Of a stretch of 34,639 nt of DNA, positions 1,187 to 16,847 are shown piece by piece (position 1 is the first letter of the stretch; every line of letters starts with the position of its first letter). The position numbers and the translations under genes were made by a program. The notes under the pieces are model-generated. The model was not told the DNA's origin. It was given only the letters and a program-made list of their open reading frames with translations, and searched no databases. Source of the DNA: a virus; IMG/VR virus record IMGVR_UViG_3300027844_000355, positions 1-34,639 of that record; one strand, 5' to 3'.

Positions 1187-2030
1187 GTTCGTAACGAATA
1201 AAGAAATTCCTAATTTGTTATTGTCTGGTGGACCTGGCGTTGGTAAGACGACGGTTGCTAGGGCTTTGTGTGAGCAACTGGAAACAGATTACCTCATCAT
1301 CAATGGTAGTGAAGAATCTGGCATAGATGTTCTTAGAAGTAAAATAAAAGGTTTTGCTTCTACTGTATCATTGACTGGTGGAACTAAAGTTGTGATATTA
1401 GATGAAGCAGATTACCTCAATCCTCAAAGTACGCAACCCGCTCTCCGTGGGTTCATTGAGGAATTTCATAACAACTGTAGATTTATATTTACAGCTAACT
1501 ATAAAAATAGAATTATCGAACCATTACATTCTCGATGTTCAGTTATTGAATTCAAGATAAATGGCAGTCGTGATAAATTAGCTCACGAATTGCTTAATCG
1601 TTGTGGCAATATACTGAATGAGGAAAATATAAAATACGATAACAGGGTTGTAGCAGAACTTATTATGAAACACTTTCCGGATAACCGGCGAGTGTTGAAT
1701 GAACTGCAGCGGTATAGTGCTGCGGGTGAAATAGACTCCGGAATTCTTGTCAATCTTTCAGATATTAATTTGAAAGAATTGACCCTCCACCTCAAGAATA
1801 AGGAGTTTACCAAGGTGCGTAAATGGGTAGTCGATAATATCGACAATGACCCTACGAAAATCTTTCGTAAAATTTACGACAACTTGTATTATACTATGGA
1901 ACCGAGCACTATACCGTCTGCTATTATTTTAATTGGTCAGTATCAATATAAATCAGCATTTGTAGCTGACCAAGAGATTAATTTGTTGGCGTGTTTAACA
2001 GAAATTATGAGCCAATGTAGATTCAAATGA
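1098..2030 (+). CDS. 44: sliding clamp loader ATPase, large subunit (T4 gp44)
   Basis: A 310-aa AAA+ ATPase (T4 gp44 is 319 aa) that opens and loads the gp45 ring at primer-template junctions with gp62. Visible motifs are an N-terminal EKYRP box, Walker A GGPGVGKT at 44-51, Walker B with DEAD box LDEAD at 101-105 (T4 itself has a variant DEFD), and the SRC arginine-finger motif at 145-147. Residues from about 215 form the helical collar domain. Its start lies inside the zinc-ribbon gene, and its stop overlaps the next ATG (ATGA at 2027), which begins the accessory island rather than gp62 as in T4. Confidence 0.95.
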   Translation: MKQILWVEKYRPRKIQDCILPPAIKKSFSEFVTNKEIPNLLLSGGPGVGKTTVARALCEQLETDYLIINGSEESGIDVLRSKIKGFASTVSLTGGTKVVILDEADYLNPQSTQPALRGFIEEFHNNCRFIFTANYKNRIIEPLHSRCSVIEFKINGSRDKLAHELLNRCGNILNEENIKYDNRVVAELIMKHFPDNRRVLNELQRYSAAGEIDSGILVNLSDINLKELTLHLKNKEFTKVRKWVVDNIDNDPTKIFRKIYDNLYYTMEPSTIPSAIILIGQYQYKSAFVADQEINLLACLTEIMSQCRFK

Positions 2031-3268
2031 ATGATGCTTGGAGTGATAGACTAAAGCAAGAATACGGTGAGTGGTTGGAGAAATACAATCACAACGTAGA
2101 GGCTCTTAGTGATGAGGAGATGAAAAATCTCCTAGAGGAAGAATTATTGTTTACTTCCGATATGTCCGTAGAAGAATATACCCTTTGGCAAAAATGGCAT
2201 GAGATACAACGTAAATATCCAACTAAGGAAGTATCAACTCTTTTTGGTAAAGAAAAGGTATTGATTGAAGGTACCCACATTATAGACAAAGCTAAATCTA
2301 TGATGTGGAAACCAAAATCTATTAATGATTATTTGAACTTGGAACCAGAGATGGTTCTTACAAATTATAATGATTGGTTAAAGGAACAGTTTACAACAGT
2401 AAGAACCTTTTGTCACACACAACGAAACAATAATAACATAGGTAGAAATATGTTTTACCTTGTTATGGATAAACTTACAGGTAAGTATCTTGGTGTGATT
2501 GTTATTACAGGAGATTTTCTTGACTTAGCACCCAGAGATAATTTTATAGGTTGGACCAGAGAACAGAGAAACGCAGGTAGATTGAAACATACTTGTATAG
2601 GCTCAACAATTTTACCAACCCAACCCCTAGGGTATAATTATGTAGGCGGTAAACTATTAGCATTATTGTGTTTGTCTGATGAAGTGCAGAACGAATGGAA
2701 AAGAAGATATGGTCAGACGTTGGTGGGTGTGACTACAACATCTTTATATGGTTCGTTTTCACAATACAATAATTTAAAATATTGGAATAAAAGAGGAAAG
2801 TCATCCGGTTCTATTGTATTTGAGCCAACAAGAGACACCTTATATAAAGTTAGAGATTGGGTCCATAAACGTGACCCTGTTAAATATTGGGAATGGTATT
2901 TTGCTTTAGACGATAGAGGTAATAAACTTAAACGTGACCACAAATTTAGAATGTTGAATTGGGTTTATTCTCAGTTGAAGATAAAAGATACAAAGACGAT
3001 GCACCAACGTGGCATTTATTTTTCCCATCTTTATGAAAACTCATCAGAGTTTTTAAGAGAGGAAATATTAGAGACTAAATTAAGAAAACGATTTGACACC
3101 TCTACCGAACATTTGGTTAACCTTTGGAAAGATAAATATGCGAGTAAAAGAATTAAGTCTCTTATAGAAAGTAATAGAGTAAAAAAGGAAACTCTATTTT
3201 ATGATGAATTGATTTACCTTAGCTGGGAAGATACTAAGAAAAAATATTTACCGGATGTGGGTCGGTGA
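2027..3268 (+). CDS. DUF4338 / DruA-like protein
   Basis: A 413-aa protein whose central region resembles DUF4338, the family that includes DruA of the Druantia defence system. Conserved-looking features are the APRDNFIGWTREQR segment, a TILP box, GYNYVGGKLLALL, a Trp-x-x-RYG motif and TTTSLYGSFSQYN, followed by a KxWxKRGxSxG strand. The biochemical role of the family is not known to me. The N-terminal ~120 residues are charged and helical with no recognised domain. Its ATG overlaps the gp44 stop (ATGA), and its own stop overlaps the next start (GTGA), so it is the first gene of the island and is translated with gp44. The match is by motif memory only. Confidence 0.6.
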   Translation: MNDAWSDRLKQEYGEWLEKYNHNVEALSDEEMKNLLEEELLFTSDMSVEEYTLWQKWHEIQRKYPTKEVSTLFGKEKVLIEGTHIIDKAKSMMWKPKSINDYLNLEPEMVLTNYNDWLKEQFTTVRTFCHTQRNNNNIGRNMFYLVMDKLTGKYLGVIVITGDFLDLAPRDNFIGWTREQRNAGRLKHTCIGSTILPTQPLGYNYVGGKLLALLCLSDEVQNEWKRRYGQTLVGVTTTSLYGSFSQYNNLKYWNKRGKSSGSIVFEPTRDTLYKVRDWVHKRDPVKYWEWYFALDDRGNKLKRDHKFRMLNWVYSQLKIKDTKTMHQRGIYFSHLYENSSEFLREEILETKLRKRFDTSTEHLVNLWKDKYASKRIKSLIESNRVKKETLFYDELIYLSWEDTKKKYLPDVGR

Positions 3269-5088: not shown

Positions 5089-5625
5089 ATGAAACAGAAA
5101 GGATTTACATTAATAGAGTTGATGATTGTGGTAGCAGTGATTGGAATCTTAGCAACAGTAGCAATTCCTTCTTATAGCAATTATACAGTTAAGGCTAAAA
5201 TTTCAGAAGCATTTTCAGTTATAGGTCCTTGGAAGATGGAGATGATGGAATATTTCTTTATGAATGGAGAATTTCCTAAAAAAGGATGTAATTCTTGTAT
5301 CGGTATGGGATCAGATGGTGATTGTGGAGCATCCTTACGAGCTGGTAAAAGTTGTTCCTTTGGAAAAAGTGGAATAGGAACCTATGTTCAAAATATTCAT
5401 ATTGGAGGTCGAGTTGAATTGAAGGAAGACCAAGATTTGATTATAACTTTCAATGACAATGCTGGTGCTGCTGCTGGTAAGCGGATAGCTTTACGAGCAG
5501 TTAATAGCGGCGGTGTAATTGCATGGGTATGTTCCTCTATGGCCTCTATGGATCCTTCTGCATTAGATTTAAAATACTTACCTTCAAGTTGTAATAAATA
5601 TATATATTGCCCGGCCTGCGGATGA
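5089..5625 (+). CDS. type IV pilin (PilA-like prepilin)
   Basis: A complete 178-aa type IV prepilin. Residues 1-5 are a short charged leader ending in Gly. The prepilin peptidase site is G5/F6, followed by [17 protein letters not shown], with the conserved Glu at mature position 5 and the hydrophobic assembly helix continuing to about residue 28. The C-terminal part has the classic IAW-x-C strand and a disulfide loop C148-C168 ending LPSSC. Six further cysteines (67, 70, 79, 89, 174, 177) include two CxxC pairs, which is unusual. It should be processed by the host prepilin peptidase and join or interfere with host pili. A GAGAGG-like ribosome site (GAGAGG) lies just upstream of ATG 5089. The next gene starts on its stop (ATGA). 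Confidence 0.9.
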
Positions 5626-12989: not shown

Positions 12990-13916
12990 ATGAGCAAAAT
13001 AATTGATGAAGAACGAAGAGCAGAAAGTATAAGAGTATTGGGTTTTGATCCATTTGAACAGGAATACCAATCTCTACCTATAACGGATATAACACCAGCA
13101 ATGGCGGCATATATTCTAAAATGGCACAATAATGATAATCGTAAGATTAAAGCTTCACAAGTAAATGCCATAGCTAATAGTATGAGAAATGATGGTTGGT
13201 TAAAAGATGGTGGACATCTTACCTTTAATAAGGAAGGTAACATTACGGAGTTTCAACATCGTCTTGAAGCTATTATAAAAGAAGGTGTTACTGTTGTGGC
13301 ACCTGTTGTTCTTGGTGTTGAACCAGAGTGTTTTACTAAAACCGCTTCACCGAAACCTCGCCGTCCAGAAGATGAAATCCAGAGGAAATATCCCGATGCA
13401 AAGGACAGTGAAATTACTGTTGTTAGGGAAATCCAAAAGCGCCGCCAAGCAACTAAACTTGATATGCAAAATGCAATTGAATTATGGGAACAGTGGCACA
13501 AGATTGTTCAAGCAGGCGATAAACTAATTGATGGATTTTTTGACAGGGTTGATGCATTTAGTCACTATCGAAGGAATTTTGCTGCATGGGCATCGTTGAT
13601 GCATTGGCATGGTCAGGATAATATTGTAACATGGTTTTTAGACATGTTAGAGAATCAAGTCTTGGATGATGAAGGCACACGTTTAACTAAAGACTTTATG
13701 AAGATGAGTCAACATACATTTGGTATGACAAATACAGGCCGTGCAGATTTTGTATATTTTATGTTATGTGTGTGTTCAGACCGAATGAAGAAATCTCCTG
13801 ATGGTAGGATACAACTCAGCAAAGGAGTTAATGTGCTTAATCACGAAGACCTTAAACATAATGGAACTTATAGAGATTTCTTATTAAATGTTGATAATAT
13901 TCAGGAAACCCCGTGA
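12990..13916 (+). CDS. ParB/sulfiredoxin-like protein paired with the methyltransferase
   Basis: A 308-aa protein whose N-terminal part resembles the ParB/sulfiredoxin-like domains found beside phage DNA-modification genes. The clues are KASQVNAIANSMRNDGW (about 54-70) and ITEFQHRLEAI, a variant of the usual 'DGQHRLEAI' box in which the DGQ is replaced by EFQ. The C-terminal half is helical and unrecognised. Whether it is active is unknown. It has a strong ribosome site (AAGGAG at 12977-12982) and its stop overlaps the start of the methyltransferase (GTGA), which suggests a shared job. Confidence 0.55.
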   Translation: MSKIIDEERRAESIRVLGFDPFEQEYQSLPITDITPAMAAYILKWHNNDNRKIKASQVNAIANSMRNDGWLKDGGHLTFNKEGNITEFQHRLEAIIKEGVTVVAPVVLGVEPECFTKTASPKPRRPEDEIQRKYPDAKDSEITVVREIQKRRQATKLDMQNAIELWEQWHKIVQAGDKLIDGFFDRVDAFSHYRRNFAAWASLMHWHGQDNIVTWFLDMLENQVLDDEGTRLTKDFMKMSQHTFGMTNTGRADFVYFMLCVCSDRMKKSPDGRIQLSKGVNVLNHEDLKHNGTYRDFLLNVDNIQETP

Positions 13917-15109
13917 CATATAAACCCTACACTATGCAAGACGTACATGATGCATCTGCACAAGAGAAGTTCAAAGTCATCTCCACCTTTGCGGGTGGGG
14001 GTGGTTCTTCTACTGGTTATAGATTAGCTGGCGGGAAGGTTCTTGTCATCAATGAGTTTGTTGAAGAAGCACAAAAGACTTATGCAGAAAATTATCCTGA
14101 GACAGTTATTCTTCCAGGTGATATTAAAGAATTGACAGGTAAGAATTTCTTAGATGCAGCTGGTGTTGATGAAGGTGAGATTGATATATTAGATGGATCA
14201 CCACCCTGTTCAGCATTTTCTGTTGCAGGGAAATTATCTCACAATGTGCGTGAAGAAGAACGTGTTGACCTGTTTGGTAATGTGACTGTAGAGAAGGTTG
14301 CTGGTAAACATTCTGATGGTTGGGGTCAGACCAAAAACTATTCTGATGGTAAAATGGTTGAGAACATTGAAGACCTATTCTTTGAATTTCTGCGTGTTGC
14401 AAAAGACATCAAACCAAAAGTCATTGTTGCAGAAAATGTCAAGGGGTTGACGATAGGAGAAGCCAAAGAATATTTTAATAAGATACTCAATGAATTTGGT
14501 AATATAGGATATCAAGTATGTGCTCAAGTTTTGGACAGTAGATACTTTGGTGTATCTCAAACAAGAAGTAGGGTTATCTTTATTGGTGTGCGTCACGATG
14601 TAATGGCTAAGTTGGGATTAAATTTTATGACTATATCTCAAATATTTCCTCAACCAGATGCAGATGTTATTCCTGTTAAGGATGTAATGATTGATTTAGT
14701 TTATGATACAGAAGAAGTGAAGTACCTTACAGAGAAATTTACCAACACAGCATACTGGAAATATACTGGTAGTAAAATGCCTATTGATCCCGATAAGGTT
14801 CTTACAGGAGCAGATTACCATCCCAAAGGACATCACTTCAATCTTAAAAGGGTATCACAATATCAACCCTCTCCTACGATTACTGCTATGGGCTCAGCAG
14901 ATACAACAGCTGGTGCATTTCATTGGATTGAGCCAAGGAAGTTGACTTTGGGAGAATTAAAGCGTATAATGAGTTTACCGGATGATTTTAAATTGACAGG
15001 TAAATGGAATCAAAAAGCAGAACGATGCGGCAGAATGGTTCCACCGAGAATGATGGAGCGTATTGCCTCGGCAATTTATACTAATGTATTGGAGAAATAT
15101 AATGGCTGA
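13913..15109 (+). CDS. C5-cytosine DNA methyltransferase, unusual cofactor pocket
   Basis: A 398-aa Dcm-type C5-cytosine methyltransferase. Motif I is FAGGGGSS at 26-33, motif IV GSPPCS at 95-100 with nucleophile Cys99, motif VI ENVKG at 174-178 and motif VIII QTRSR at 216-220. A target-recognition region lies between about 230 and 330. Two positions lining the transferred-group pocket are odd. The residue after the catalytic Cys (Gln82 in M.HhaI) is Ser100. Motif X, normally Q-x-G-N-x-V, reads RCGRMVPP, so the conserved Asn is Arg374. No endonuclease partner is nearby, so it probably modifies phage DNA for protection. It starts at GTG on the upstream stop, and the CmoA-like gene overlaps its end. 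Confidence 0.92.
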   Translation: MTYKPYTMQDVHDASAQEKFKVISTFAGGGGSSTGYRLAGGKVLVINEFVEEAQKTYAENYPETVILPGDIKELTGKNFLDAAGVDEGEIDILDGSPPCSAFSVAGKLSHNVREEERVDLFGNVTVEKVAGKHSDGWGQTKNYSDGKMVENIEDLFFEFLRVAKDIKPKVIVAENVKGLTIGEAKEYFNKILNEFGNIGYQVCAQVLDSRYFGVSQTRSRVIFIGVRHDVMAKLGLNFMTISQIFPQPDADVIPVKDVMIDLVYDTEEVKYLTEKFTNTAYWKYTGSKMPIDPDKVLTGADYHPKGHHFNLKRVSQYQPSPTITAMGSADTTAGAFHWIEPRKLTLGELKRIMSLPDDFKLTGKWNQKAERCGRMVPPRMMERIASAIYTNVLEKYNG

Positions 15110-15797
15110 CTTTACCTTTGCTCATAGGCAAGAAGGTTTTGATGAACACATTGATTGGAGTATCAGGGGTTATAGTAATTTATTGGATGATGTTGTAAGT
15201 CTCTCACGATATTTTGTTGAGGGAGATACTAATGTATTAGACATTGGTTGTTCTACGGGCAAACTCACCGCACGTATTTTGGAACATAACTATGGGGCTT
15301 GTCCTGATGCTAAGTATGTAGGGGTAGAAGTGGCCGAAGGTTTCTTTGGTAATCTTGAAGACAGAAAGTTGGAGTTAGATGAGAAATATTCTGACACCTC
15401 TGTTGATTTTATTTACGATGATATCCGTAATTATGAATTTGAGAATTGTTCTCTAATAACGTCCCTTTTTACCTTACAGTTTATGCCTTATTCTTGTAGG
15501 GAAGAGGTCATTCATAATATATATTATGGTCTTAACTGGGGTGGTGCATTTATTTTTGGTGAAAAGATTGATACATCACACAGTCGTATAGAGAATATGT
15601 TACGCACCACTTATTACGAATTTAAAAATAAGTCTTTTGATTATGAGGATATTATGCAGAAAGAATTGACCTTAAAGAATATGCTTAAACCCAATTCATG
15701 GGATGAGATTGAAAATATGTTAAATAATGCTGGTTTTAAAGCAGTGCAAAGCTTCTGGCAGAACCATTTGTTTATAGGCGCAATAGCAATTAAATAA
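15102..15797 (+). CDS. CmoA-like SAM-dependent enzyme
   Basis: A 231-aa protein related to CmoA, the enzyme that makes carboxy-SAM from SAM and prephenate for tRNA wobble uridine modification. Matching segments: a GYSNLL helix at 23-28, motif I LDIGCSTGKLT at 46-56, SLFTLQFMP at 121-129, GLNWGGAFIFGEKI at 143-156, and a C-terminal end that aligns without gaps to E. coli CmoA as I recall it. The prephenate/carboxylate-binding Arg199 of E. coli CmoA (in SQKR) is Glu188 here (MQKE), and Arg22 replaces a Pro in the N-terminal loop, so the chemistry may differ. The start has GGAG at 15091-15094. It overlaps the C5 methyltransferase by eight bases. Confidence 0.7.
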   Translation: MADFTFAHRQEGFDEHIDWSIRGYSNLLDDVVSLSRYFVEGDTNVLDIGCSTGKLTARILEHNYGACPDAKYVGVEVAEGFFGNLEDRKLELDEKYSDTSVDFIYDDIRNYEFENCSLITSLFTLQFMPYSCREEVIHNIYYGLNWGGAFIFGEKIDTSHSRIENMLRTTYYEFKNKSFDYEDIMQKELTLKNMLKPNSWDEIENMLNNAGFKAVQSFWQNHLFIGAIAIK

Positions 15798-15839: not shown

Positions 15840-16847
15840 ATGAGGATCGTTTGTGCTCGCTTGAGAAGTAATGTGACCTATACTGGTCCACTAGAAACTG
15901 TCTTGGATAGTTTCTTTGAACTGTATGTGAGATGGATGAAAGACAATTCACAACATAACTATGATACATATAATTTAAGTTTTGATAAAAGACAACGGCC
16001 ACAACGCAACGCTGAGGTGTTCAAAGATGCTGATGTAGTAGTGATCCCTTCCGATAGTGAGTTTAGATACCACGGCGAAGTACAGCTAGATCCACGAGAC
16101 TTGGAGACATCTAATAACTATATTGAAGAAATTAAACCACATATGGAAGGCAAACATATTATTATGTGGCGTTCAGATAGAGGTGATACAGAAGAATTAT
16201 ATAGAGAGAAAACATTTAATGGTGTTACTCTCGGTGATTTCAACACAATAGATGAGATAGATTTTCCTGCTAACATACACGGCATGAAGTATCATTTTAT
16301 ACAGACATTGAAAAACCCATTGGCTCAAATGTTGCCAATTAGAAAGGATAAAGATTTTGCTTATTGGGGTAGAATGAAAGATGGTGATGACCGAGGTAAA
16401 ATTATTAAAGGGGTGTACAGAGATAAAGATATTACTCAAGTATTGATTGGGGGATTTCCTTCAGGCGTTAAGCGAGATGCTAAGTGGATAAAAGAATGGA
16501 AAGTATTGTACCCTATGATAGAACGAGCCAAGTGTACTCTATGTTTTAATTGGCGAGACCCGACAGCAACAACATCAAGGTATCCGGAAGCATTATCTGT
16601 AGGTTTAATACCCTTTGTATGGCAAGACTATGATAAGAACAATACCTATAACATAGAATCTTGGCAACGTGTAGATAGTTTTGAGAAATTGAAAACTAGA
16701 ATATTAATGTTGCGTTATCGTGAAGCTTGGGAAAGCAAACTTGATCTGTGTAGACAAAATTATAAAGAGATACTTCCTACACAACAGGAGTATTATGAGA
16801 TGTTCACAAAGAGGATGAATAAATATGTTAGCGAGGGAGAAAAGTAG
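15840..16847 (+). CDS. putative GT-B glycosyltransferase
   Basis: A 335-aa protein with a layout like GT-B transferases, including phage DNA glucosyltransferases. It has an N-terminal strand MRIVCARL, a DADVVVIPSD strand near 63-72, an interdomain strand beginning FAYWGRMKDGDDRG (about 173-186), IGGFPSG, and a C-terminal RYPEALSVGLIPFVW segment typical of the nucleotide-sugar-binding lobe, followed by a helix that returns to the first domain. No sequence match to T4 beta-glucosyltransferase was shown. Its place beside the C5 methyltransferase makes DNA a possible acceptor; a surface glycan is the alternative. It has its own promoter and abuts uvsX directly. Confidence 0.5.
   Translation: MRIVCARLRSNVTYTGPLETVLDSFFELYVRWMKDNSQHNYDTYNLSFDKRQRPQRNAEVFKDADVVVIPSDSEFRYHGEVQLDPRDLETSNNYIEEIKPHMEGKHIIMWRSDRGDTEELYREKTFNGVTLGDFNTIDEIDFPANIHGMKYHFIQTLKNPLAQMLPIRKDKDFAYWGRMKDGDDRGKIIKGVYRDKDITQVLIGGFPSGVKRDAKWIKEWKVLYPMIERAKCTLCFNWRDPTATTSRYPEALSVGLIPFVWQDYDKNNTYNIESWQRVDSFEKLKTRILMLRYREAWESKLDLCRQNYKEILPTQQEYYEMFTKRMNKYVSEGEK

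What the first reader, a model, noticed from the sequence alone, without database searches (positions are those of the whole stretch)
13913..15109. Phage C5 methyltransferase with motif X Asn replaced by Arg: possible non-methyl cofactor
All catalytic motifs are intact, but both positions known to shape the pocket around the transferred group differ: Gln82 of M.HhaI is Ser100, and the motif X Asn (Asn304 of M.HhaI) is Arg374. From memory, an engineered CpG methyltransferase (M.MpeI) with a basic residue at this Asn uses carboxy-SAM and makes 5-carboxymethylcytosine. A natural Arg here, beside a CmoA-like gene, suggests that the phage may add a carboxymethyl-like group to cytosine.
Basis: partly seen in the sequence, partly recalled or inferred. 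Interest (0 to 1): 0.8.

Follow-up and report, generated by a model that had tools for sequence, protein, structure and literature searches.

The report
Phage enzyme adding carboxymethyl to cytosine
This marine phage carries a two-gene kit, a carboxy-SAM maker (CmoA) and a modified cytosine methyltransferase (CmoX), that very probably puts carboxymethyl groups on its DNA; the reaction was demonstrated and published in December 2025 for a close relative, so this is a new member of a known system that lacks the usual third gene nearby.

Summary
The 398-aa C5-MTase (13913-15109) is by far closest to SpCmoX of Synechococcus phage S-B43 among solved structures (PDB 8YF3; E 6e-138, 58% identity; predicted model Z 47.7 against 33.5 for the next). 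SpCmoX was shown to transfer carboxymethyl from carboxy-SAM to cytosine in GC, using Arg350 at the M.HhaI Asn304 position (PMC12783734). Window Arg374 aligns with Arg350; every cofactor contact named in that paper is conserved. The next gene (15102-15797) is 56% identical to the proven phage carboxy-SAM synthase SpCmoA. The linkage test passes: in 15 complete phage genomes, 7/7 Arg-type carry CmoA and 0/8 Asn/Met/Leu-type do; in metagenomic loci with adequate flanks, 75/76 against 0/50. Ser100 is not diagnostic. What differs here: the amide ligase CmoY, present beside CmoX in about half of close relatives, is absent from this contig; its slot holds a weakly ParB-like gene (12990-13916). So plain 5-carboxymethylcytosine, or an unidentified derivative, is predicted. 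Known chemistry, new member, modest interest.

The parts
13913..15109 (+). CmoX: DNA cytosine-C5 carboxymethyltransferase (398 aa)
   Evidence: 58% identity to SpCmoX / PDB 8YF3; AlphaFold model pLDDT 88, Z 47.7 and rmsd 1.7 over 333 residues against 8YF3; PF00145
14207..14212 (+). Motif IV Cys99 (nucleophile) and Ser100 (M.HhaI Gln82 position)
   Evidence: Alignment columns
15032..15034 (+). Arg374, motif X carboxylate-binding residue (SpCmoX Arg350, M.HhaI Asn304)
   Evidence: role of Arg350 from PMC12783734
15102..15797 (+). CmoA: carboxy-SAM synthase (231 aa), overlapping the end of cmoX by 8 bases
   Evidence: 56% identity to SpCmoA; TIGR00740 E 2.1e-36; PDB relatives 1im8, 4gek, 4iwn
12990..13916 (+). 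Accessory gene in the slot between polB and cmoX where many relatives carry an accessory gene and/or the CmoY ligase; ParB-like only by weak evidence
   Evidence: Slot comparison; phrog_5931 E 8e-20, phrog_498 E 0.006; overlaps the cmoX start. AlphaFold model failed (pLDDT 42)

Best explanation
The window encodes a CmoA-CmoX DNA modification pair of a cyanophage-like (T4-type) marine phage. CmoA converts SAM plus prephenate to carboxy-SAM. CmoX flips a cytosine out of the helix, attacks C6 with Cys99, and transfers the carboxymethyl group from carboxy-SAM, whose carboxylate is held by Arg374, to C5; elimination releases 5-carboxymethylcytosine (5cxmC). The likely target is a short GC-type site as in SpCmoX, but the recognition region is only 42% identical, so the exact site is open. 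Because no CmoY-type amide ligase lies in the 34.6 kb contig, 5cxmC may stay unamidated; its likely role is protection from host restriction. Shown here: homology, Arg register, conserved contacts, linkage, absence of the ligase in the contig. Shown elsewhere for the relative: the chemistry. Inferred: that this protein does the same.
For: SpCmoX is the top match by sequence (E 5.6e-138 against 3.4e-22 for the next) and by fold (Z 47.7 against 33.5). SpCmoX Phe25, Glu47, Phe48, Asp69, Cys98 and Arg350 are all present as Phe26, Glu48, Phe49, Asp70, Cys99 and Arg374. SpCmoX uses only Cx-SAM, and R350N loses activity. SpCmoA relative next door. Linkage: in complete genomes 7/7 Arg-type with CmoA, 0/8 Asn/Met/Leu-type; in viral loci with at least 1.5 kb on both sides, Arg 75/76, Leu 0/36, Asn 0/14.
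Against: No activity has been measured for this protein. The window CmoX has a 17-residue insertion after motif IV relative to SpCmoX, partly modelled with pLDDT under 50. CmoA falls below the TIGR00740 equivalog cut-off, but so does the experimentally active SpCmoA. One Arg-type locus with long flanks (L183) has no detectable CmoA.
Confidence: 0.92

Rival explanations
1. 5cxmC is made but is only an intermediate: an amide ligase encoded elsewhere in this incomplete genome, or an unrecognised accessory enzyme such as the 12990-13916 product, caps the carboxylate, as CmoY does with glycine in S-B43.
For: A CmoY homologue lies near CmoX in 51 of the fetched relatives besides S-B43 itself, fragments at contig edges included; AsnB-type ligases with a glutamine amidotransferase domain occupy the slot in L082 and L084. 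The window is a fragment of unknown completeness.
Against: No Asn_synthase domain in the window and no tblastn match of SpCmoY. Three records of about 180-207 kb with CmoA-CmoX also lack PF00733: S-CRM01, RN05-S (both complete) and G004, so the system exists without that ligase. The close relative L085 has polB followed directly by cmoX.
Confidence: 0.4
2. It is an ordinary C5 methyltransferase that makes 5-methylcytosine, and the Arg and the CmoA neighbour are incidental.
For: All methyltransferase motifs are intact, and phage C5-MTases with other residues at this position (Leu, Met) occur without CmoA.
Against: Wild-type SpCmoX accepts only Cx-SAM. Arg and CmoA co-occur almost without exception, while Leu, Met and Asn types never have CmoA.
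Confidence: 0.04
3. The CmoA-like gene serves tRNA cmo5U modification or another host-takeover role, and CmoX is unrelated to it.
For: CmoA of bacteria acts in tRNA modification; several phage records annotate it as a tRNA methyltransferase.
Against: The genes overlap (15102-15109), and their adjacency is conserved in nearly all relatives. The paper reports that phage S-B43 lacks a CmoB homologue; I did not search the window for CmoB.
Confidence: 0.03

Closest known systems
CmoA-CmoX-CmoY system of Synechococcus phage S-B43 (PMC12783734; PDB 8YF3; MN018232.1)
   Same: CmoX 58% and CmoA 56% identical; same Arg; all named Cx-SAM contacts conserved; cmoA and cmoX in one gene cluster
   Different: No CmoY ligase in the window; order is accessory gene-cmoX-cmoA instead of cmoA-cmoY-cmoX; 17-residue insertion after motif IV; recognition region only 42% identical
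CmoA-CmoX of Synechococcus phages S-CRM01 and RN05-S
   Same: CmoX 58-60% and CmoA 55-56% identical, and no Asn_synthase ligase in the whole genome
   Different: Gene order cmoA-cmoX; no match to the window's 12990-13916 gene near cmoX
Engineered M.MpeI N374K
   Same: Basic residue at the same motif X position enables use of carboxy-SAM (cited in PMC12783734)
   Different: Engineered, CG-specific and distantly related (chain 4dkj_A, CpG-specific methyltransferase: E 3.7e-10, Z 30.0)
M.HhaI and canonical C5-MTases
   Same: Fold, Cys nucleophile, ENV and RxR motifs
   Different: Asn at motif X, SAM cofactor, methyl product

Membership tests
CmoX (DNA cytosine-C5 carboxymethyltransferase) | C5-MTase fold with SPPC motif | tested here: met
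   SPPC at 96-99; PF00145; Z 47.7 to 8YF3
CmoX (DNA cytosine-C5 carboxymethyltransferase) | Arg at SpCmoX 350 / M.HhaI Asn304 | tested here: met
   Arg374
CmoX (DNA cytosine-C5 carboxymethyltransferase) | Genomic association with CmoA | tested here: met
   Overlapping cmoA; subfamily-wide linkage
CmoX (DNA cytosine-C5 carboxymethyltransferase) | Uses carboxy-SAM, makes 5cxmC | not testable with these tools
   Needs an enzyme assay and LC-MS; shown only for SpCmoX
CmoX (DNA cytosine-C5 carboxymethyltransferase) | GC target motif | not testable with these tools
   Recognition region 42% identical to SpCmoX; the paper says other members' specificities remain to be determined
CmoA (carboxy-SAM synthase) | Sequence family TIGR00740 / homology to proven CmoA | tested here: met
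   E 2.1e-36 but 125.8 bits, below the 193.3 cut-off; the proven SpCmoA is also below it, 115.6 bits; 56% identity to SpCmoA
CmoA (carboxy-SAM synthase) | Makes carboxy-SAM from SAM and prephenate | not testable with these tools
   Needs an assay
Complete CmoA-CmoX-CmoY hypermodification system | Asn-synthetase-like amide ligase CmoY nearby | tested here: not met
   No PF00733 and no SpCmoY match in the window; the contig is incomplete, so absence from the genome is not shown
Canonical SAM-dependent C5 methyltransferase (Dcm type) | Asn at motif X | tested here: not met
   Arg374

The most novel reading that the evidence does not exclude
In this lineage the amide ligase is functionally replaced by the slot protein at 12990-13916 (or another unrecognised enzyme), which would put a different group on, or otherwise act on, 5cxmC, giving a second kind of carboxymethylcytosine hypermodification.
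Probability: 0.1. Interest if true: 0.6.

Novelty: new member of a known kind. Interest (0 to 1): 0.3.

Why it matters
It shows that the single motif X Arg is a reliable genomic marker for carboxy-SAM-using DNA modification: almost every Arg-type has CmoA, and no Asn, Met or Leu type examined does. It also shows that CmoA-CmoX often travels without the ligase, in complete genomes too, which predicts phage DNA carrying free 5cxmC. Free 5cxmC was not seen in S-B43, the phage whose DNA was analysed in the paper.

Tried and rejected
AlphaFold of the slot protein (12990-13916) failed (pLDDT 42.5 with 3 sequences), and iterative profile search found only its close copies, so its ParB-like nature is a weak lead. 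The neighbour 15840-16847 was considered as a hypermodifier and rejected: of 80 homologue loci fetched, only three near-identical to the window showed a motif X-scorable CmoX. Ser100 as a marker was rejected. tblastn with the window CmoA misses divergent CmoA (Mcat8), so TIGR00740 was used for the complete genomes and a profile of my own for the contigs; in the contigs, 49 Turk-group hits score only 82-110 bits with that profile and are counted as CmoA because they also resemble TIGR00740 (one member of this type from a related group tested, L208, 67 bits). A 2013 computational survey of phage base modifications that I recall as predicting use of modified SAM is not in the paper library.

Full report
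What is there. The frame 13913-15109 (+) is open, starts with GTG inside the end of the upstream gene, and encodes a 398-aa PF00145 C5-cytosine methyltransferase. The gene at 15102-15797 overlaps it by 8 bases and is a CmoA homologue.

Identity. Among all solved structures the protein matches one entry far above the rest: 8YF3, 'DNA cytosine C5-carboxymethyltransferase in complex with Cx-SAM', i.e. SpCmoX of Synechococcus phage S-B43 (E 5.6e-138; next 3.4e-22). An AlphaFold model from 25 window and IMG/VR sequences (pLDDT 88) superposes on 8YF3 with Z 47.7, rmsd 1.7 over 333 residues; the next entry has Z 33.5 (Foldseek E 2.6e-43). The S-B43 record gave SpCmoA, SpCmoY and SpCmoX for direct comparison: window CmoX 58%, CmoA 56% identical, CmoY without a match.

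What is known. PMC12783734 (Nat Commun, December 2025) reports that SpCmoA makes carboxy-SAM, SpCmoX transfers the carboxymethyl group to cytosine in GC motifs, Arg350 contacts the carboxylate, R350N accepts neither SAM nor Cx-SAM, and CmoY joins glycine to the product; S-B43 DNA holds the glycyl form. It also cites the engineered M.MpeI N374K and lists 5,615 CmoX candidates from sources including IMG/VR.

Transfer to the window. The residues named in the paper, Phe25, Glu47, Phe48, Asp69, Cys98 and Arg350, are all conserved. The segments outside the recognition region are 62-74% identical; the recognition region (236-341) is 42% identical, so the target site may differ.

Linkage test. I sampled relatives of both kinds. 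In complete named phage genomes, Arg-type enzymes of S-B43, S-CRM01, RN05-S, Mcat8, TurkishDelight, Erwinia Y3 and PaBG all come with a CmoA; Melnitz (Leu), FPSV-S2, LoVEphage, tooticki, PD491P1, LS06-2018-MD05 (Met), CL131 and Wphi (Asn) have none. In viral loci with at least 1.5 kb on each side of the gene, 75 of 76 Arg-type have CmoA (the exception is L183), against 0 of 36 Leu and 0 of 14 Asn. These loci are related to each other and a few may repeat the same phage, so the counts are not independent events; but the association holds in several divergent Arg lineages (window-like, TurkishDelight-like, PaBG-like, Erwinia Y3). About 49 of the TurkishDelight-group hits are divergent CmoA-like proteins. 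Ser at the Gln82 position does not discriminate.

Accessory slot. In close relatives the order is polB, optional accessory genes, cmoX, cmoA. The slot often holds a 300-500-aa gene plus a CmoY ligase; sometimes only the accessory gene; sometimes nothing, as in L085, L072 and L075. The window has one accessory gene, 12990-13916, and no ligase. Three records of about 180-207 kb with CmoA-CmoX also lack an Asn_synthase domain: S-CRM01, RN05-S and the contig behind L076. The ligase therefore looks optional. ParB-like similarity of the slot proteins is marginal (best PF02195 E 0.006 in L036; the window gene matches only phrog_5931 and weakly phrog_498); the paper notes ParBc genes beside CmoX without a known role.

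Verdict. A new member of a published family, with high confidence in the chemistry by homology. What remains open is the final base in phages without CmoY and the role of the slot gene.

Noticed in passing
L105 4681-5679; L293-L296: Staphylococcus SPbeta-like phages carry a C5-MTase linked to a CmoA (directly adjacent in L105, L293, L294 and L296) but with Gly, not Arg, at the motif X position and a GSPCQ rather than SPPC motif; the published CmoX filter (SPPC plus Arg) would skip it. In L295 a second C5-MTase with Arg lies beside it.
   Followed up: partly
L213-L292; L093: A marine phage C5-MTase group (Melnitz type, 80 of 80 loci) has Leu at motif X, with no CmoA, and the Melnitz protein has Pro after the catalytic Cys; another group (Flavobacterium, Bacteroides phages) has Met. 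Why the motif X Asn is replaced there is unexplained.
   Followed up: partly
window 5089-5625: A type IV pilin-like gene (PF00114 E 2e-11, PF07963 E 1e-9) in a phage contig, inside a block of sugar, radical-SAM and methyltransferase genes between the two clamp-loader genes; among fetched loci it was seen only in the near-identical L006 and L008.
   Followed up: partly
window 2027-3268: A DruA-family protein (PF14236 E 4e-20), with homologues in many of the fetched phage loci.
   Followed up: no
L023 11181-11726; L028 and L029 2603-3184; L076 11164-11727: Some relatives carry an extra gene of about 190 aa between cmoX and cmoA with no Pfam or PHROG match for the one tested (L023); by eye it has a nuclease-like look.
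   Followed up: no
L092 3995-4645; L106-L185: A divergent CmoA-like family (63.5 bits to TIGR00740 for Mcat8) next to Arg-type C5-MTases, which plain tblastn with the window CmoA did not list for Mcat8.
   Followed up: partly
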